A stretch of DNA of 64,000 nt from Callaeas wilsoni (lineage: Eukaryota; Chordata; Aves; Passeriformes; Callaeidae). Shown here in pieces: positions 6,142 to 44,284 of the stretch; the first letter of the stretch is position 1; the number at the start of each line of letters is the position of its first letter. The stretch is from assembly GCA_013398955.1 (NCBI GenBank), contig VWPU01004175.1, forward strand, positions 123,189-187,188, read 5' to 3'. The notes beneath the pieces were generated by a model, which saw only the letters and a program-made list of their open reading frames with translations, was not told where the DNA came from and did no database searches. The translations under genes and the position numbers were made by a program.

Positions 6142-6178
<37 letters not shown>

Positions 6179-10329: not shown

Positions 10330-11330
10330 CTGTTATAGACCAGGACCCGTAAGTAATTTCTGCAAAGCTGATTTCTAGTTAGTAAGATCCTAGCCTCATC
10401 CTTCCAGCTAGTCTGGCTCAGATGTGGCTAATCCCACTATGGGAAGTGCTCCTCCAAGCAAGTGCCTCCAGGATTTGGAAGCTTTGCGTTATTCCCTGTT
10501 TGGCCTTTTCTTCAGCTGCCAGTACTGGGTCAGGTACAGCCACGCCACCTCTTCAAGTCCCCGGTTTGGGGTCAAACCCTGGCCTCACCTGTATGGCTGG
10601 TGTGGGCTGGAGGAATGGAATAAGAGGGTGAGGTTTAGCTACCTTAAGAGCCAGAGCACAGGTGGCAGGCTGGAAGTGCAGCCTTCAACTGCAGTAGCAA
10701 CTGCTGTGGCAACTGCCAAAACTGCAGAGAGCCTTCCAGGACCTTCTAATGGCTGCCGGAGACTGGATCTTTCCAGGTCCCTTCCTCAGACAATTCTGTG
10801 ACCTGTACCATGGTATCAGCACTTGTGTTCCCCTACCTTTCTGTCCCTTTGTCCTCTGCAGGGTTGCAGCGTACAGGACCCGAGGGGCCGGGAATGGCAG
10901 CTCTTCCTGCATCTCACCGGGCTCACACCCTACCCTTCCCATGGGAGCCCCAGAGGCCCTCCCTGAGTCCTCCACACTGCACAGCCCAGGCATAGTTCCC
11001 CCAAGGCCAGGGCACCTCGCTGCCTATTCAGATGTCTTTAACCTTCCGCCAGGGCCTCACTGGCTCTGGAAGGGAAAGCAGCAGGCACAAGCCTCTCTCC
11101 TGGTCTTTTGCCAGCTCTGTTTCCCTTGCATTGCCGAGCAGTACTCAGGAGTCAGGGCAGAAACAATCCCACTGAACTGTGCACTGAGGCCTCCCCCCGG
11201 GTACACCTGTGCTGTCCCCACCCATTCCATCCCAGAACCTCCTCTGCCTTGGCTGGACCATCCCATCCTACCCCAGAGCTCCACAAGCCTTGGGCAGAAC
11301 AGCCCATCTGCACTGCATTGTGTTGCACTG
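10330..11330. other. GC-rich block of unknown origin
   Basis: About 1 kb is clearly richer in G and C than the surrounding DNA, with many CCC/GGG runs and few CpG dinucleotides. It directly abuts the CR1 RT fragment at 11336-11690. A 291-codon plus-strand frame (10749-11624) spans it, but its last third is antisense to that CR1 fragment and the rest is Pro/Ser/Leu-rich without a domain. I read it as chance from stop-poor GC-rich sequence. It may be an unrecognised repeat, an old LTR or a structured non-coding region. The length makes it the longest open frame in the window, which is the only argument for coding. Confidence 0.5.
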
Positions 11331-11335
11331 CATTC

Positions 11336-11690
11336 ATCCACCAAGCTAGCAATTTCATCATGGAAGGTTATCAGGCCGGTCAGGAATGATTGCCCCTTTG
11401 TAAACCCGTGTTTATTGTTTCTGGTCACTGTCATGTCCCTTGTGTCTAGAAAGGTTTTCCAAGTTTATTTGCTCTATCATCTACCCAAGGACTTAGGTGA
11501 AGCCAACTGGCTTGTAGTTCCCCAGATCTTCATTCTTCCCCTTCACAAAAATAGGAGTGATATTTACCTTCTCCTAGTCTTTAGGAATCTCACCCGATCA
11601 CCATGGCCTTTCAAAAATAGTTGAGAGTGGCCTTGCAATGACGTCAGTCAGTTTCTTTCACTTTTATGGGAGAATCCCAAGTGGAGTTAA
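11336..11690 (-). mobile_element. CR1 LINE reverse-transcriptase fragment
   Basis: In minus-strand order (11690 to 11336) the broken translation follows the fingers region of the CR1 RT: a TDVIARPLSTIFE-like start near 11650, an ITPIFVKGKNEDLGNYKPV segment near 11550, then after a frameshift HGFTKGQSFLTGLITFHDE near 11400, ending at LVDE near 11336. Frameshifts and stops show that it is dead. The palm domain with the catalytic aspartates is missing because the GC-rich block begins there. Confidence 0.9.
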
Positions 11691-17718: not shown

Positions 17719-18619
17719 CCTAGTTGGAGCACCAGAGCTGAGCTTGACAGAAGCACTGTGATGGACTCACTGCTTACTACATCAGCAATGTTTAAAAACA
17801 GAATTTTCTTTGCAACACAGGCATACAATATGAAATTTATTGCTACAGGAGGCAAGAAGCCAAAACCGACTGAAAAATTCAAGAAAGAAATCCACTTGAA
17901 AATCAGTAAGTGTAATGGAGTAGATACAGTGTCCAGCTGAATAAGCTACCTGTCCTAAAATAACTAATAGCACACTGAAGTTTCACAAAAAAAAGGAAAG
18001 AACTGTAAGCAGAAGGTTATGAATTCTGGTGCTCCTTCACTGCTGTTCTTTAGAAGAACTCTTACTTGCATCTTAACCAGCCTTAAATTGCCTAATGGAT
18101 GTTATGCCTACCTTTCATCTTATCCAAAAGCCTCTTCTCCAGATCAGAGGCAAGACTCCATCCTGACTTTCTGTTGAATTCATTCAGCAATGCAGTATGA
18201 GGACTCATTGAAGATACTTTGAGAAGACAATGATGTCCATTTTGTTATTTCTTCATCTTCTTTTATTTCAGTCTTTGTTCTCACAATCTCTCTCACCTGT
18301 TTTGTCTCTCTCTTTGTAGCTGCTACAATCTAATCTACATTTCTATTTTACTGTACCACTCACCCTCTACACACACAGACATATACATGTGTTCATGTAC
18401 ACACACAGAAAGTTAAAACATCTTGCTTCTCTAATCTGTTCTATTTCCCCTATGCTCTTATACCCATATACTCCTTTCCACTCAAAAAAGCAGAAACAAA
18501 TCAAGCAAACAGCAGTACCATCAAGTTGTGTATAAAATGAACCTAAGTAACCATGTAATTATTCTCACTCTATTGCCGCTGCTCTTTATTGCTCTCACTT
18601 ATTGTGTCATCTTTCATAT
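17719..18619. other. Unique sequence, no feature recognised
   Basis: CA-rich pieces occur at about 18365-18410 (several short ACACAC runs). Otherwise nothing is recognised. Confidence 0.5.
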
Positions 18620-29027: not shown

Positions 29028-29454
29028 TGTCGAATTTCCAGAGTTAATTTTTGTAGTAGCCAGGAGGGGCAGGACCAGGACACAGAGGTTATTCTGTATC
29101 ACCTGTCATAATTTTCTGGGGGCAGGGGGAGAGCTCACTTCCTGGTTGTAGTAGGGTGGCAGATGGAGTGGTAGGATATTGTTACATATTTCCACAGGGT
29201 GAGAAATAGAGCTTCTTTTCTTGTACACTCTGTTAGTAATATCGTTATTGTTGTTACTCTTCATTTTCTTATCTTACTGCTCTTTCCAGTTAATTGTTCT
29301 TATCTCAACTGGTGATCTTTCCCTTTTGTGCCTTCTATTCTCCTCTCCAACTTGCTTCAGGGGGAAGGGGAGGGGAAAGTGACCACGTGATGCATGGTTT
29401 GGACTGGTTTCAGTGGGAACACTAATTGGAGAATACCATTCATATACCATAACA
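29028..29454 (+). mobile_element. Solo LTR, ERVL-like
   Basis: A 427-bp LTR begins TGTCGAAT and ends CATAACA. It is flanked by a perfect 5-bp duplication AGGGG at 29023-29027 and 29455-29459. It is a diverged relative of the LTR at 1259-1643: both share the 'gttaat' start region, a pyrimidine-rich middle and a 'cttatctcaa' segment downstream of the polyadenylation site. The AATAAA at the homologous place (about 29290) has decayed. There is no internal retroviral sequence. Confidence 0.88.
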
Positions 29455-29631
29455 AGGGGTCATATACAGCTGGAATACCAATATTTATTAAGATTTAGCA
29501 ATATTTATCTACTAAATATATCTTTGTTCAATATTATTGTCTATGTAATATTTTTAAATAAGCACTTTTGAAGAGACTTAGAAGATGTATTTAGTTTAGG
29601 CAAAATGAAAGACAATGTATTTTTGTGCAGA

Positions 29632-30054
29632 AAGATGGATGGAAGACCTCCCCTGTGAGGAAAGGCTGGAAGAATTGGGATTGTAAGACTGTTAAAGACA
29701 AGGCTTTGGGGTGACCTAATTGCAGTCTTCCAGTACCTGAAGTGAACTAACAGGAACATGGAGAAAGACTGTTTGCAAGAGCATGTAATGACAGAACAAG
29801 GGGAATGGGTTCAAACTGAAAGAGAATATGTTTAGATTAGATATCAAGAAAAAATTCTTTACTTTGAGGATGGTGAGACACAGGAACAGGTTACCAAGAG
29901 AAATTGTGGGTTCACCATCCCTGGAAATGTTTAAGGGCAGGTTGGATGGGGCTTTGAGCAACCTGATCTAGTTGAAGATGCCCCTTGCCATGGCAGAGAG
30001 TTGGAACCAGATGCTCATCAAGGTCCCCTTCCAACCCAACTGATTCTGTGATGA
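29632..30054 (+). mobile_element. CR1 LINE 3' end
   Basis: A 5'-truncated CR1 starts at the 'gaggaaaggctggaagaa' segment (end of ORF2) and runs through the full 3' region ('ggttggatggggctttgagc' near 29940, 'ccttccaaccca' near 30028). It ends with the octamer-like TGATTCTGTGATGA at about 30041-30054. The ORF2 remnant corresponds to the C-terminal end of the protein and contains stops. It lies only 178 bp downstream of the solo LTR. Confidence 0.95.
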
Positions 30055-31832
30055 TTGGTTTTGCTAGGATGATACCACAGCTGATGCAAATGAAAGAAAG
30101 AAAAAGTGTGGTTGCTGATTACTTTATAGTTTAGATCCTTCTTACATATTTCCTTACATTGCTCTTTTTTGTGTGGAAAATTCCATGGATTTATAGCTCA
30201 CTGTTATGATTTCACTGTTATGATTTCATCATTTAGGCAAATGAACAAAGTCTAGGCTGTAACCTATGAACACAGAGAGTGTGTGGACAGTGTATTAACT
30301 AAGTTTCCCCACCCACAATACTGTCTGTTTTAGTTTTATAATTCTATCTTTCTTTCTTTTCTTGGTTTGTTTTTTTTTTTTTCCCTCAGAGTTGATAATA
30401 TCTGTTACAATGGAGATGGCTTTCAAATAACCAACCCTCTCTAATAATGTCCTCTGATGCATGGAAGGTTCTGCCTTACTCTGCAATAAAGCCTGTGTAG
30501 ATGGCACACAGCTGTCCCCTGTTGCAGAATAGCACTGGAGCATCTATTTCTCTGCGGTGCAAAATGCCAAATGAATATAGGTCAGTAAATCACAAAGCAA
30601 GCTAATTAGACAGTACTGGAACATAAATGCAAAGCAATAATGAGCCACCGACATTGCTAAGAGCTATGATCTTGCCCTCCACTCTTTGCTACGGAGTGCT
30701 TCTACTTTCTTGTGGGAGTGGAAGGGACAAAGGAGTGAAAACTAGGTTTTTACCATAGAATAATATTGTTCTTCTCCTTTCCTGTCTTCATAAATAAGGG
30801 AGAGAAGGTTCTTGTTCTCCTTTAAGTAGAAACAAGTGGCCTACACACTGCACAACACTGAGTAAAATTGGTGAAAATTTACATTGGGGTTGCTCTTCAA
30901 AATAACTTAAATGTACAATTTGATATATATACTTCAAATAATTACGCAACTTTTCCAACACCTGCAAGCACAAGGATAAATTATGTTAGTGATTGAAAAG
31001 TGTTCTGCTTGCCTTCTTGTTCCTGTAAAACTAGCAACTTGTTCTTTGTTTTTCCCCCTCTAATAAAGTTGTCTTTTGCCTTTCTCTGTCACTGGATAAC
31101 TAGTAAATAAAAGTGATGAGGTGTTTTCTGATTTCTTTTCCTACTCGTCTGCATTACCATCTTCCTAAATGTCGCTGTGCTCCAATTCTCTCTTTTGACA
31201 TCCATATTGCTGAACTCTCATGAGTGAGGCTGTTAGCCATCACGACCTGTTGACACCATACAAGAGAGAAAACGGACTTGCTCTTCCACTTAATTCTTTC
31301 AGGTGATACTGTATTTTGGTTTGAGGGGTTTTTTTTGTTGTTGTTCTCAAAGCATTTAATGATGTTTTTATGAAGTGATATTTAAACACTAGCAACAATA
31401 ATGAAATCTCAACAAGGCAACTGTGTTCACTTCTGTACTACCAGGATAATGAAGGGCAGTTATTGACAGAGACAAAACAAAATGAAAACATACAAGTCAG
31501 TTTTGAAAGAGAGAAAGAAACTTTAAGATATGTGTTATGGAAGTGTTAGAAGAGAAGCAATAATGCTTCAAAGCTCCTATTAATACAGACTGCACTCAAG
31601 GAGAAGGGAGCACTCAAGATTTGTAGATGTTCGTGTTTGAAAAGGAAAGAAAAAGTCAAAGGGTCCACAAAAGAAACTTAAAGACTTTTATTAGTGCATG
31701 GAAATGGGTGTTAGTTAGTCCCTTGTCTTCTAGCATAAGCACTCCATGGTAGTGGGTTTTGAATAATGGGCAAGGTGAAAGGTAAGAGAGAGAAGGAAAT
31801 CAGAAAGGGAGAGAGAAAGAGAGGAATAAAGG
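30055..31832. other. Unique sequence, short tandem repeat
   Basis: A 14-bp unit (CACTGTTATGATTT) occurs twice in tandem at 30199-30226. A purine-rich GA tract occupies about 31780-31832, just upstream of the next LTR. No gene is recognised. Confidence 0.55.
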
Positions 31833-38500: not shown

Positions 38501-40112
38501 CATAAACTAGTGAATTATTTACTGGATATTTTCATCAGATTAGCAGCTGAAATACAAATATTACAAATGTAAAATTCTTTACATTGAGTCACGTTTTACA
38601 GTAGGAAATCACTAGCACTGAGAAACAAAAATTATGGAAAGATGCATTGACTAATTGATTGGAAGACAACGATTGGTCATGTAATGCTAAAATATGGATA
38701 AGGAAACCACATACTCATCAATTAATTAAAATATTGCAAAGCTGTTCCAATATATTATTCAATGGCAAAATAAATCAGGCCTATGCAATCACTCTAAATG
38801 GCCTTGGATATTATTATTAGGTTAGGTAGGATGTCCTTTTGCCATTTAGACGTGGCCTTTTGCCTTATGCAGAGCTGCATATTTCACCCCATTTAACAAA
38901 TAACCTGCTACATAATATATGATCTCTGTTGTAATTTTCTGTCACTTATGCCTGATTCACTCTTCCACACCTAGAATATTCTAAAGTGAGAAACAGTCAC
39001 TCATATACAGAACTTTAACTAATTAGTAACCATCACATTTTGTTTTATATTAAATACTGTACAGTCTTAAGGAGAGTGCATGATTTACTTTTTCATAAAT
39101 GACCTGTAATGCAAAAGTTCACACTCTAACAAGTTTTGTAGAGGGCAAAATTCTTCCTTCTAAAAATGGTGCGCCACTTGAAAAGATCATAAATAAACAC
39201 CCAAGAGAGTAACAGAATATGTAAAAATAATTATTTTTGCCTTGAATCCCTTGCAGAAGCTACAATGCATCTATTGTTAACACAAAAGGCACACTTGCAA
39301 AGCGAAAAGCAATAAAACTTAGGAATCACAGTTTCAAAAGTCTAAGAAAGAACAAAACTGAAGAACAATTGTCCAACCCTTAAAAGTGTTTTGTAGTGTA
39401 TCTGGAATTTCTCATTTCTCTTTTTTTGCAGAATTCTCAACAGTTATTTGTGGAAAAAAAAACATTAGAAAGAAGAGAAGAGAAGAGAGAAACTGGAAAA
39501 TGATTCATCATCCCCTGTATCAGCACATGTTCCCAGAGTAGCAAAGCGTTAACAGTCCTTTGTGTTTTTCTTCAGTTCAACTTTAGTTGAAACTGATGAA
39601 CAACAAGTCACTTGTTTTTGATACAATACTTATAACAGAAACATGGAAATGTTGGCTTTACACCTTCTCGTCTAGTTGTAGAACTGATCACAACTGTTTT
39701 CAAAATTAAATAAGGCTGAAAAAGCAGAGAAAGATTAAATGCGTGGTAGAAATATCTGGGAGGAACGCATTAAGTATTGTGCAAATTTTATGGGTGGCTT
39801 TTTCCCATTTGATATCAAAATTTGTCTCTATTAATCTAAGAGCCTCTTGTACCTCTTCTCCAAGAATTGTAGTACTCAGGTTTAGTGCTACTGGTTGCAG
39901 TAACATGGGAACCACTATAGTGTTTTATTTTTCTCCTGCAGCCACTATCAAAACCTTTAGTGGGAGATAAGTAATCCACAAATTACAGAGTGTTCTACAC
40001 AGAAGTTCATTCATTCTCCACGTTCATTTAAATGTTACCTCTTAGTTTGTCGGTTTATAAATTTCTAAACAAACAAAAAGTTTTAAATTTACTTCAGACA
40101 AACTATGGGTGA
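35511..40112. other. Unique AT-rich sequence with a short tandem repeat
   Basis: About 4.6 kb without a recognised gene. It contains the 23-bp tandem repeat at 37539-37592 and an (AGAAG)n purine tract at about 39471-39490. Confidence 0.5.
37539..37592. repeat. 23-bp tandem repeat, 2.3 copies
   Basis: The unit beginning CAGTTGCYGCTGATTTCTTG occupies 37539-37561 and 37562-37584 with two mismatches, and an 8-base start of a third copy follows at 37585-37592. It is a local slippage duplication with no known function. Confidence 0.92.
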
Positions 40113-40117
40113 CACCA

Positions 40118-40342
40118 TGTGTTGGTTTGGATATAAATTTAGGAGGAAATAATTTGAGAGGGGTGTTTTATTTTTTTTCTCTCTCCTGCCTGCTAGGTAA
40201 GTAGGTTTTGGTAGTATTTTTTTTAATGGGTTTGGGAAAATAATTTCTTGAATGAAAGTGAAAAAAAAAATCTATTTATTTAATAAACAGAGTTTTTTGT
40301 TGTAATAGGGTAAAGAAAAGAAATGTTTAAAACAATTAAAAA
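40118..40342 (-). repeat. Outer R-U5-like copy, C-to-T hypermutated
   Basis: Aligned without ambiguity to 40343-40539 over 197 bases with one extra A. Of 33 substitutions relative to the inner copy, 28 are C to T on the plus strand. The rest are one each of A-T, G-T, A-G, T-C and C-A, and no G to A is seen. Only one affected C is in a CpG (40457), so methyl-CpG decay does not explain it. The last 27 bases (40316-40342) match less well and replace a C-run by A-rich sequence, so the copies part there. In the element's sense the change is G to A. Confidence 0.9.
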
Positions 40343-40567
40343 TGTGTTGGTTTGGACATAAATCAAGGAGGAAACAACTGGAGAGGGGTGTCTTACTCTT
40401 TCTCTCTCTCCTGCCTGCCAGGTAAGCAGGCCCTGGCAGCACTTCTCTCATGGGTTCGGGAAAATAATTTCTCAAATGAAAGTGAAAAAAAAAACTTATT
40501 TATTTAATAAACAGAGTCCCCTGCTGTCACAGGGTAAAGAAAATACATATTTAAACCCCCTCCCCGT
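40343..40567 (-). repeat. Inner R-U5-like copy, apparently unedited
   Basis: The reference member of the tandem pair, starting TGTGTTGGTTTGG like the outer copy. It keeps 39 C residues over 40343-40539, against 10 shared with the outer copy. It includes a 10-base A tract and the antisense polyadenylation signal. It continues without a break into the rest of the LTR (C-run at 40556-40564), so it is the original LTR end. Confidence 0.88.
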
Positions 40568-41009
40568 CTTTTAAAAGAGGATTATGGATTTTAGAGTTTT
40601 TTCTGTAGGTAAAACCTGCAGTCCTGAGCTGGGCCGGGCCGGCCAGGCAGGGTCCGACGATCCCCCTTGGAGGGTCCTGCCGAGCAGGTCTGGAGATGGT
40701 AGCTGGTCTCACATGAAAAGCAAGCTAAAAATAGTTTAAAAAAGAAAAGAAGCCGCTGAGGCAGATTACAGTTCCTTCTCCACTGAAAGCCAAAGAGACT
40801 AGAGAGTAAAAGTCCTCTAACCAACAAACGTTGTTAGAATCGGGAGAGAAAAGAATGCAAAACACTTTACTTGCAAGGTCAAGTTAGCCGTTTTGAAGAG
40901 TTCTCTCGGCTTCTCTCTCTGTCTTTCTTTTGTAATTTAAAGGTACGCTAGAAATCAAGCAGGCGATGGGGAATACAGTATGGTCATAGAATCACCCCAA
41001 GACACACCA

Positions 41010-43179
41010 GTATACATCCATACAACCACTGTTCACCTCTTTCTCTGTCTGAATATGTTGAGATGTATCAATTTTTTTAAAAAAGCCAATTTCCCTTCTT
41101 TAATAGTATTTTGCGATAGTGAATGAAATAATTTTATTGGGAAATGAGCAATCAAAATGGCTGGGTTTAATTATTAAATGTGTTTTGTTTCATTTAAGAA
41201 ACATTTTATTATTCTTACACAATATCAATCATTCTCATTCAGAAAAATGATGGAATACTACTAAATCTTCATGCAAAAATAAATTTTATTACTTCTTTGC
41301 AATAGGCATCTTGAACTGAAAGGTGAATCCCGCTTGTTATCTAAACTCTTGGTCAGATCTTTTAGTCCCCCAGATGAAGTCAGTTACAGTCCATTGAAGT
41401 GAAGTCAAATATATACATAGAATACAGCTATCCAAACAATATCAAAAACCATGTAAGTTATTAGAATTCTTGTCATCAAACCACTAAATACAATTTATTA
41501 AATGCATGAGAACTATTAAATGTATTCTTATTATCACTGATTTGATAAATGTTTTTGAGGAGATTTTTCCTCATCAATGTTTTAGTAAGTTTACCTTTCC
41601 TCACATCCTTATTTAAATCTACTTCACCATACTATTTGAATAGGGGAGGAGTTGTATAGATTCTGTTACTGAAGTACATAAATATTTGGTTTCATTCAGA
41701 ATTTGAAATAAACTTGAATATTCCATGAAATTAAAGATCAAAATCATAGTAAAAAACATTTCACGTCATTATGATTCTTTCTCAGTGTTGACAATTTGTT
41801 TTCTTGTATTTTAACAAAGAGTAGTCTAACTGAAAAGAAAATTGGAAATAAAAATCAAAACATTCAGCACAAGTAATATCAAAACCCATCACATTCAGTC
41901 AGTGATGAAGGTTTCCACCTTTCTTTTCTTGTGTGTATTTTTTTTAGAAAGAAAACATAATCAACATAATCAACAGCATTTTAGGAAGTCCCAAGCATTG
42001 TCCCAAAGTCTTGCCTTTTTATTTTATTTTCTTTTCCTTTTTTCCCTCCCCCTCAGTTGCCTAGAGAGGAGATGAATTCCCAGTCTGAATTATGCAGATG
42101 CACTCTGCCAACATTTAAGAAAAACTTGTGGAATGATGTTGCCTAACAGAAAATCCAGTGAGGACTCAGTTACTTGGTAGTCAAGAGAAGTTTCTTATCT
42201 AGCTATCTCTTACTTTTATTACTGTAATAATTTTAAATTCAATTTTAACACACATTCAGTTGTCTTATTTTTTAAGGGAGACAAAGCAACATTTTATAGT
42301 GAAATCATACTGACTAAAAGCCATATTACTAAACTGAGATATTGCATTTGAATTTTTTCAGTAGAAATTGGTGAACTGCACATTTAAAGTAAGTTTGATA
42401 CTGCTCAAGATATTTTCTATTTTTATTTGTTAGTTAATTATCAGGTAAATTGTACTTCGTTGTATAAAGCCTTAGACCTGCAGCCAGCAAGAAATTCCAA
42501 GGGCAAAACTGGATATTGTCTAAAGTTTAGATACTATAAGAGAACCTGTAGATAGTAATCTACATATTTGGGCTGAGTAGAATTTGCATTTATCTGTTTC
42601 AGCCCAAATCCATCATCATTTCCACATCACTAAGCACTGAGAAAGCTGCTATTACATGAGTGAAAGCACAGAGATAATATTTAGCCTCCTAATATTATTT
42701 CCTCCTGTATTTTTCAGGTGGTTTTCCTTTCATCTGTTGTTTTTTTTTTTTTTTTTCCTAAATTTCCTGTATCTAACTGTAAAATGCACCGATTTGTCTG
42801 TTTTGGCCTCCATCTGCTGCTCCTGAGGATGTGGTGTTACGTGCACAGTCCCTGCGCAGATGTATCAGACACTCTAAAAGTGTTAGTAGTGCAAGGACCT
42901 TATCTTGCTCTTGTTTAGGCAAGTAATTCAAGCCCTTGGTGTCTGAATCTGAAAATTAACTCAGTTTTGCTTGAGATAATACTTGATTTTCAGGTTTCTG
43001 GCTGCAAAGACATGGTCCTGAATTAAACTTTAATTCCCAATCAAGATAACCCAAAATTTCTTTGAAATACTAAATGTCTTAAAAATTCCTTTAACTTAAA
43101 CACTTCTCTTCATCAAATGACTAAGGGGTCAGCCTTCTAGGGATGTACCCACCTAGGACACACTCAGTCTTACTCTTTT
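41010..43179. other. Unique AT-rich sequence
   Basis: No gene or repeat family is recognised. A 17-base T tract lies at 42740-42756, without an antisense AATAAA near it. Confidence 0.5.
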
Positions 43180-43345: not shown

Positions 43346-44284
43346 AGGAGCAAATCATCTTCAGTGCCATCATGTGGCATGAAAAGGACAATGAGAGGAT
43401 CAGGCACAGCCAGAATGGGTTTATTGAAGGCAGGTCTTGTTTGATCACCCTGATGTCCTTCTATGACAGGGTAACACATTTAGTGGATCAGGGAAAGGCT
43501 GTGAATATTGTCTCTCTAGACTTCAGTAAAGCCTTTGACACTTTCTCTTGGAGAAGATAGCTACCATGGTTTGGGCAGGTGACTGTTCACTACATAAAAA
43601 CTGCCTGCGTGGTCTGTCAAAGGAGTGGTGGTGAATGGAATTAAATCCACTTGGTGCCTAGTCACAAGTGGTGCTCCCCAGGGCTCAGTACTAGGGCCGG
43701 GTCTGTTAAAGAGCTTTATCAGTGATTTGGATGTGGCAATTGAGTGTACCCTCAGTAAGTTCACAGATGACAACAAGTTGGGCAGGAGTTGATCTTCTGG
43801 AGGTCAGGAAGTCTCTGCACAAGGCCCTGTACAGTCTGGATTGATAGGCTGAGGTCAGTGGTACAAGGTTCAACAAGGCCAAGTGCCGGCTCCTGCCCTT
43901 GGGTCACAACAACCCTGTGCAGTGCTACAGGCTGGGGGCAGAGTGGCTGGAACCTTGTCCAGTGGAAAAGGACCTGGGGGTGCTGGTCAGCAGCAGCTGA
44001 ACATGAGCCAGGGTGTGCCCAGTTGGCCAAGAGGGCCAATGGCATCCTGGCCTGTATCAGAAAAGGAGTGGCCAGCAGGACCAGGGCAGGGATTTCACCT
44101 CAGCATTGTGATTGTGCTCAGCACTGATGAGGCCACACCTCAAACATTGTTTTCAGTTTTGCAGGTAAAGACATATACATATGATGCTTAAGGACATGGA
44201 TTAGTGGAGATCTTGGCAGTCCTGGGTTAATGGTTAGACTCTGATCTTAGAGGGCTTTTTCAACCTAAATGATTCTATTATTTT
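43340..44284 (+). mobile_element. CR1 LINE with RT domain, internally deleted
   Basis: Plus-strand CR1 ORF2 remnant. NGFIEGRSCLITLMSFYD (about 43415) leads to LDFSKAFD (about 43520), then a frameshift and stop. Next come a [13 protein letters not shown] segment (about 43670), ISDLD, and the catalytic region with FTDDN where FADDT is usual (about 43760). The connection domain follows to about 44160. It then jumps to the 3' end ('gggttaatggttagactc' near 44225) and finishes GATTCTATTA at 44271-44280. Several frameshifts and stops make it a pseudogene of a non-LTR retrotransposon. Confidence 0.95.

What the first reader, a model, noticed from the sequence alone, without database searches (positions are those of the whole stretch)
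40118..40539. Strand-specific C-to-T hypermutation between two tandem copies of an LTR end
Seen: over 197 aligned bases the outer copy (40118-40315) differs from the inner copy (40343-40539) by 33 substitutions. 28 are C to T on the plus strand, none is G to A, and one is T to C. Of 39 C residues in the inner copy, 28 are T in the outer. Only one is in CpG. Known: APOBEC/AID-type deaminases edit retroviral minus-strand cDNA, giving G to A in the element's sense. The LTR lies on the minus strand, so the observed direction is exactly that. Inference: one R-U5 unit carries a fossil editing event. DNA editing of LTR retrotransposons has been reported in birds, but a within-one-insertion edited/unedited pair would be unusual and gives its own internal control.
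Basis: partly seen in the sequence, partly recalled or inferred. Interest (0 to 1): 0.82.

Follow-up and report, generated by a model that had tools for sequence, protein, structure and literature searches.

The report
Half-edited remnant of bird retrovirus
A damaged leftover of an ancient bird retrovirus carries two copies of the same virus end, one of which lost most of its C letters on one strand, most likely to an antiviral DNA-editing enzyme, while its neighbour was spared.

Summary
Across 197 aligned bases, 40118-40315 differs from 40343-40539 by 33 substitutions: 28 of 39 C became T, and 0 of 45 G became A (Fisher p about 1e-13). No family relative was found, so the direction was inferred from composition. 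The outer copy has 5.6% C against 22.7% G; of 63803 windows of 198 bp, 13 are as skewed, and all overlap this copy. The inner copy looks like the neighbouring U3. A change-point scan that ignores the alignment puts the start of C loss at base 40118, the LTR terminus. Strand-specific deamination of the outer copy is well supported.

The locus looks like an internally deleted provirus on the minus strand: a whole 5' LTR (40343-41004), a 27-base junction, and the end of the 3' LTR (40118 to about 40333), bracketed by CACCA. Editing confined to the 3' LTR fits a mechanism proposed for mouse MMTV proviruses in 2025 (PMC12548423). Birds are already reported to have the strongest such signals (PMC6497032). 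This is a striking new example of a known kind. No deaminase context was found, and eight adjacent unedited Cs are unexplained.

The parts
40113..40117 (.). target-site duplication CACCA, 3' side of the element
   Evidence: Directly abuts TG at 40118; the same 5-mer follows CA at 41005-41009. 471 of 8858 sampled 5-mers do as well in 40565-41200, and 135 of 8858 in 40940-41069, so support is moderate.
40118..40315 (-). outer copy: R-U5 end of the (inferred) 3' LTR, hypermutated (28 of 39 C>T on plus strand = G>A in sense)
   Evidence: C-depletion change point starts at 40118
40179..40193 (+). block of eight consecutive unconverted Cs inside the edited copy (alignment columns 62-76)
   Evidence: 0 of 8 converted here, 28 of 31 elsewhere; permutation p 5.5e-5 for the run
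40275..40280 (-). AATAAA poly(A) signal in the outer copy, sense strand
40316..40333 (-). remnant of the end of U3 (TATA-like region) of the outer copy
   Evidence: 14 of 18 bases match 40540-40557; shuffles reach this at 2.2e-4; 3 other window 18-mers do as well
40334..40342 (.). 9-base filler at the junction, no homology seen to the position-matched stretch of the inner copy
40343..40539 (-). inner copy: R-U5 end of the (inferred) 5' LTR, not hypermutated
   Evidence: base composition matches U3 (skew 0.071 against 0.079)
40499..40504 (-). AATAAA poly(A) signal of the inner copy; in sense it reads AATAAATAAG and then ten Ts
40548..40564 (-). promoter-like GGGAGGGG plus TTTAAATA (TATA-like) at the end of U3
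   Evidence: motif match only
40540..41004 (-). U3 of the 5' LTR; sense start TGTCTTGGGG
   Evidence: 13 CpG in 40560-41004, observed/expected 0.57 against 0.16 window-wide; ends in CA followed by CACCA
41005..41009 (.). target-site duplication CACCA, 5' side of the element

Best explanation
A bird endogenous retrovirus inserted in the minus orientation. During its reverse transcription a cytidine deaminase of the AID/APOBEC family converted most Cs of the minus-strand DNA of the 3' LTR, while that strand was single-stranded. The likely moment is the second exposure, when the 3' LTR strand is displaced after the 5' LTR information has been copied off, because edits made before that copying would appear in both LTRs. 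A later internal deletion removed everything between the end of the 5' LTR and the TATA region of the 3' LTR. That left U3-R-U5 (clean) directly followed by R-U5 (edited). Shown: the strand-specific substitutions, the C depletion starting at the LTR terminus, and the two LTR-end copies. Supported by inference: the polarity, the provirus anatomy and the orientation. Inferred only: the enzyme, the second-exposure timing and the deletion.
For: 28 of 39 C>T against 0 of 45 G>A. Outer GC skew 0.607 is reached by 13 of 63803 windows, all overlapping the outer copy; inner and U3 are normal. The ten lowest C/(C+T) windows of the 64 kb, which overlap one another, all start at 40116-40134; C loss starts at 40118, and the 100 bp just outside still have C at 18 of 53 pyrimidines, so the host flank looks spared. 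Runs CCC and CCCC are fully converted; PMC12548423 describes consecutive changes as a hallmark of A3. Both copies end at the same LTR terminus, while U3 lies only beside the inner copy. One TSD brackets both copies. The edited copy is the downstream one in sense, as in four MMTV proviruses and MLV Mpmv5 with 3'-LTR-specific G>A.
Against: No relative was found, so polarity rests on composition. No deaminase context (TC against other p = 0.31; WRC against SYC p = 1.0). The junction holds no TGG-starting primer-binding site, and the deletion would have to begin within about 9 bases of the LTR end, which is a coincidence. The 18 retained U3 bases differ by T>G, A>G and two C>A rather than C>T. In the four MMTV cases the two LTRs also share multiple edits; here the 5' LTR seems untouched, which is more extreme than the precedent. 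PMC6523648 notes a much more limited editing signal in another songbird, medium ground finch, and the species here is unknown. The eight unedited Cs in a row are unexplained: predicted ssDNA pairing does not separate converted from other Cs (p = 0.20; 4 of 38 label rotations as good, 3 of 38 with pairs limited to 40 bases). RNA-fold z-scores do not favour the inner copy.
Confidence: 0.55

Rival explanations
1. The tandem R-U5 arrangement, with a T-rich second unit, is an inherited feature of an LTR subfamily. Deamination happened once in a distant ancestor, and this locus is one of many copies.
For: Nothing in the data excludes it. PMC6523648 speculates that APOBEC modification drives LTR subfamily diversity in estrildid finches. 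Mtv23 is described as a probable copy of edited Mtv17, so edited LTRs can be passed on.
Against: Only 5 substitutions other than C>T separate the copies, so they are not old relative to each other. No second copy lies in the window, but 64 kb is too little to tell.
Confidence: 0.2
2. Minus-strand strong-stop DNA (exactly R-U5) was deaminated, failed the normal strand transfer, and was joined by template switching to a second, clean LTR copy, so the duplication and the editing come from one faulty reverse transcription.
For: The edited stretch is close to R-U5. Strong-stop DNA is a known A3G target (PMC7760323 passages). The unedited block overlaps the most purine-rich sense tract, where RNA could linger.
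Against: Homology continues about 18 bases upstream into the TATA-like region, which a normal transcript start would not include. The purine tract and the unedited block only partly coincide (Cs at columns 54, 56 and 60 are converted).
Confidence: 0.1
3. Genomic deamination after integration (AID or APOBEC clustered mutation, or an R-loop) hit one 200-bp patch of host chromosome.
For: Clustered mutations consistent with APOBEC3G activity are reported for hominid genomes (PMC4864454, title and abstract start in the listing only).
Against: The C loss begins at the LTR terminus and ends before or at the very start of the inner copy, with normal C content on both sides. A genomic patch has no reason to respect those borders.
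Confidence: 0.07
4. The outer copy is ancestral and the inner copy gained Cs: A-to-G editing of sense RNA by ADAR (T>C on plus).
For: The direction is also formally possible: 28 of 83 outer Ts would be edited. The 5' neighbours of the supposed edited As are A or T in 25 of 28 (25 of 61 such sites edited against 3 of 22 with C or G).
Against: It needs an ancestor with 5.6% C against 22.7% G, unlike U3 or any window stretch away from this copy. The neighbour bias is expected anyway, because the inner copy has one CpG and the outer has few Cs. A 3' G is not favoured (1 of 8).
Confidence: 0.04
5. Assembly artefact: two alleles or two loci collapsed into a false tandem.
For: Reads were not available.
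Against: By inference, a junction filler, a shared TSD and 28 of 33 substitutions of one kind are not typical of a collapse. The outer copy alone would still be C-depleted.
Confidence: 0.04

Closest known systems
3'-LTR-specific G>A hypermutation of endogenous MMTV (Mtv17, 21, 61, 62) and MLV (Mpmv5) proviruses, PMC12548423 (sections 6 and 7 and passages read)
   Same: G>A in sense, unique to the downstream LTR; runs of consecutive changes; for Mtv21, host flank spared
   Different: Mouse APOBEC3, context preference present, 2-16 LTR differences on top of edits shared by both LTRs, all but two of them in U3. Here: bird, no context preference, 28 changes in 197 bp of R-U5, upstream LTR apparently clean, provirus deleted.
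DNA-edited LTR retrotransposons of birds (Knisbacher and Levanon 2016; not held, known here only through passages of PMC6523648, PMC6497032 and PMC12548423)
   Same: Bird host; strand-specific C>T on the cDNA strand of LTR elements
   Different: The zebra finch entries listed have 57.2 and 71.5 G>A per kb over 5-6 kb (Table 3 of PMC12548423; Mtv21 there has 120.8). Here 28 in 197 bp (142 per kb), but only over 197 bp, with the comparison copy next door.
APOBEC3G editing of HIV-1 minus-strand strong-stop DNA (PMC7760323, passages)
   Same: R-U5 minus-strand DNA as target
   Different: There, five hotspots at consensus A3G sites (the CC context is recalled); here conversion is near-saturating and without context

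Membership tests
AID/APOBEC DNA editing of a retroelement | strand-specific C>T excess | tested here: met
   28/39 C>T, 0/45 G>A
AID/APOBEC DNA editing of a retroelement | change is G>A in the element's sense | tested here: inconclusive
   holds if sense is the minus strand, supported by poly(A) and TATA-like motifs; no coding region to confirm
AID/APOBEC DNA editing of a retroelement | C is the ancestral state at the changed sites | tested here: inconclusive
   composition supports it; no relatives found
AID/APOBEC DNA editing of a retroelement | preferred flanking base | tested here: not met
   no preference at -1; TC p = 0.31, WRC against SYC p = 1.0; saturation could hide one
AID/APOBEC DNA editing of a retroelement | flanking host DNA unaffected | tested here: met
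   change point at 40118; 18 C of 53 pyrimidines in 40018-40117; composition only, no comparison sequence
Provirus remnant with 5' LTR and partial 3' LTR | TG...CA ends and target-site duplication | tested here: met
   TG at 40118, CA at 41003-41004, CACCA on both sides; chance 1.5-5%
Provirus remnant with 5' LTR and partial 3' LTR | internal sequence or primer-binding site between the LTRs | tested here: not met
   27-base junction has no TGG in sense; the deletion reading requires its loss
3'-LTR-specific hypermutation | excess G>A in the downstream LTR only | tested here: inconclusive
   edited copy is downstream in sense; one site goes the other way (T inner, C outer); valid only if the provirus and orientation readings hold
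ADAR A-to-I editing | T-rich copy is ancestral | tested here: inconclusive
   composition argues against; neighbours not diagnostic

The most novel reading that the evidence does not exclude
A bird deaminase attacked only the displaced minus strand of the 3' LTR, almost to completion and without sequence preference, after the 5' LTR had been copied. That would make displaced-strand editing a separate phase of antiviral attack that can occur alone, with one protected 15-base patch recording what covered the strand at that moment.
Probability: 0.25. Interest if true: 0.7.

Novelty: new member of a known kind. Interest (0 to 1): 0.5.

Why it matters
Edited and unedited copies of one sequence side by side in one insertion give an internal control for deaminase footprints that normally need a family consensus. 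If the 3'-LTR reading holds, it carries the 2025 mouse observation to birds in an all-or-none form, and it warns that LTR-divergence dating (33 differences here, only about 5 of them not C>T) can be badly wrong.

Tried and rejected
Relatives: self-BLAST of the element and of the whole window found no second copy. Four pattern scans of viral contigs and two of genome contigs gave 0 matches; these collections are viral and prokaryotic and the scans need exact matches, so the negatives say little.

Hairpin protection of the unedited block: predicted ssDNA pairing of C62-C69 with GGAGAG looked attractive, but over all 39 Cs it is not significant (p = 0.20; 4 of 38 rotations, 3-4 of 38 with limited pair span). 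RNA-remnant protection: the block overlaps the most purine-rich sense stretch, but converted Cs lie in the same tract, so I kept it as a lead only.

RNA folding as a polarity test: inner z -1.77, outer z -2.67; not informative, and if anything against my polarity.

Nested insertion of one LTR into an older one: no further match to the element in the window, which includes the DNA beyond 41004, and the inner copy's own left flank does not recur after CA at 5-7 bases in 40540-42500 (at 4 bases AAAA gives two matches).

Rfam gave no match and ARAGORN found no gene.

The step-1 count is now given. The 5 of 63982 18-mers include the inner site and the linker themselves.

Full report
Setting. The window is bird DNA: CR1-like and ERVL-like pieces were recognised by eye from memory at 1-180, 1256-1630 and 29630-30060. 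GC is 36.6% and CpG observed/expected 0.16. The species was not identified.

Observation. The two stretches align over 198 columns with 33 substitutions in 197 ungapped columns and one 1-base gap. Of 39 Cs in the inner copy, 28 are T in the outer copy, 1 is A and 10 are unchanged; 0 of 45 Gs became A; one site goes the other way, T to C. Fisher p is 1.1e-13. Apart from the C>T changes there are five substitutions in all.

Polarity. Without relatives I used composition. The outer copy has C 5.6%, G 22.7%, GC skew 0.607. Of 63803 windows of 198 bp (step 1), 13 reach this absolute skew, all overlapping 40118-40315. The inner copy (C 19.8%, G 22.8%, skew 0.071) matches the adjoining U3 40560-41004 (C 20.9%, G 24.5%, skew 0.079). 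A scan of C among pyrimidines in 39600-40750, which does not use the alignment, gives as best single depleted segment 40118 to 40353, lnL gain 17.9; starts from 40116 to 40198 and ends from 40345 to 40364 lie within 2 lnL. The ten poorest 95-pyrimidine windows in the 64 kb, which overlap one another, all start at 40116-40134 (11-12 C of 95; mean 36%). The 100 bp outside hold 18 C and 35 T. So C was most likely ancestral, and the loss respects the element's border.

Anatomy. TG at 40118 is preceded by CACCA; CA at 41003-41004 is followed by CACCA. About 5% of sampled 5-mers would do the same within 636 bp, and 1.5% within 130 bp, so this is moderate support. In minus-strand sense the order is TGTCTTGGGG... 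U3, GGGGAGGGGG-TTTAAATA, R with ATTAAATAAATAAG and ten Ts, U5 ending CCAACACA; then TTTTTAATTG and TTTTAAACATTTCTTTT; then a second R-U5 ending CCAACACA at the duplication. On the plus strand AATAAA also occurs twice (40282, 40506); in the clean inner copy no T-rich tract follows it, in the edited outer copy a converted T-run does. Orientation is therefore likely rather than proven. The junction retains about 18 bases of the U3 end (14 of 18 match; shuffles 2.2e-4; besides the inner site and the linker, 3 of 63982 window 18-mers match as well). Both copies stop at the same LTR terminus, and U3 is present only upstream. A 5' LTR joined to the end of its own 3' LTR explains this more simply than a tandem duplication whose edge happens to fall on the terminus, although the deletion must also start close to the LTR end.

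Mechanism. In sense the change is G>A, as left by deamination of minus-strand DNA. If the strand had been edited before plus-strand strong-stop DNA was copied from it, both LTRs would carry the edits (established reverse-transcription scheme, recalled). [quoted passage not shown]). It also says such differences had not been reported for other retroviruses. The present locus fits, but more extremely. PMC6523648 and PMC6497032 (passages) report, citing Knisbacher and Levanon 2016 (not held), that bird LTR elements, above all those of oscine passerines such as zebra finch, carry strong APOBEC signals; PMC6523648 adds that the signal was much more limited in medium ground finch. A zebra finch A1 homolog is noted in PMC3880073 (passage).

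What does not fit. There is no preference at the preceding base, and TC and WRC tests are negative. Near-saturation may hide a preference, and edits can create new target contexts, as PMC12548423 argues for C tracts. Eight successive Cs at 40179-40193 escaped (permutation p 5.5e-5; 0 of 8 against 28 of 31). Hairpin protection is not significant over all Cs. Patch conversion from the inner copy is possible and untested. The retained U3 bases lack C>T. RNA-fold z-scores do not favour the inner copy as ancestral.

Literature searches for a bird case of LTR-specific editing: (and on strong-stop editing). None of the listed titles or abstract starts showed one. The lists were capped (20 of 29, 20 of 27, 20 of 89 and 15 of 24 papers), and the library is open-access only, so this is weak evidence of absence.

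Verdict. Real, strongly strand-specific, most likely a deaminase footprint (my estimate about 0.85 for deamination of the outer copy in any form), with the 5'/3' LTR provirus reading at about 0.55. It is a new and unusually clear member of a known kind.

Noticed in passing
1-164 and 29843-30005 (opposite strands): Two CR1-like fragments, 76% alike; name from memory.
   Followed up: no
1279-1555 and 29039-29333: Two old, 64%-alike ERVL-like LTR pieces; name from memory. Too diverged to test for editing.
   Followed up: no
164-305 and 43396-43538: A weak inverted pair, 64% identity, unidentified.
   Followed up: no
18241-18530: Stretch with 78 C against 26 G; strong C-rich strand asymmetry, and no repeat partner in the self-comparison.
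   Followed up: partly
40167-40172: In the edited copy the conversions create an extra sense-strand AATAAA that the clean copy lacks.
   Followed up: no
10698-11624: Stop-to-stop open frame of 308 codons on the plus strand; not searched further.
   Followed up: no
6145-6176: GATA microsatellite.
   Followed up: no
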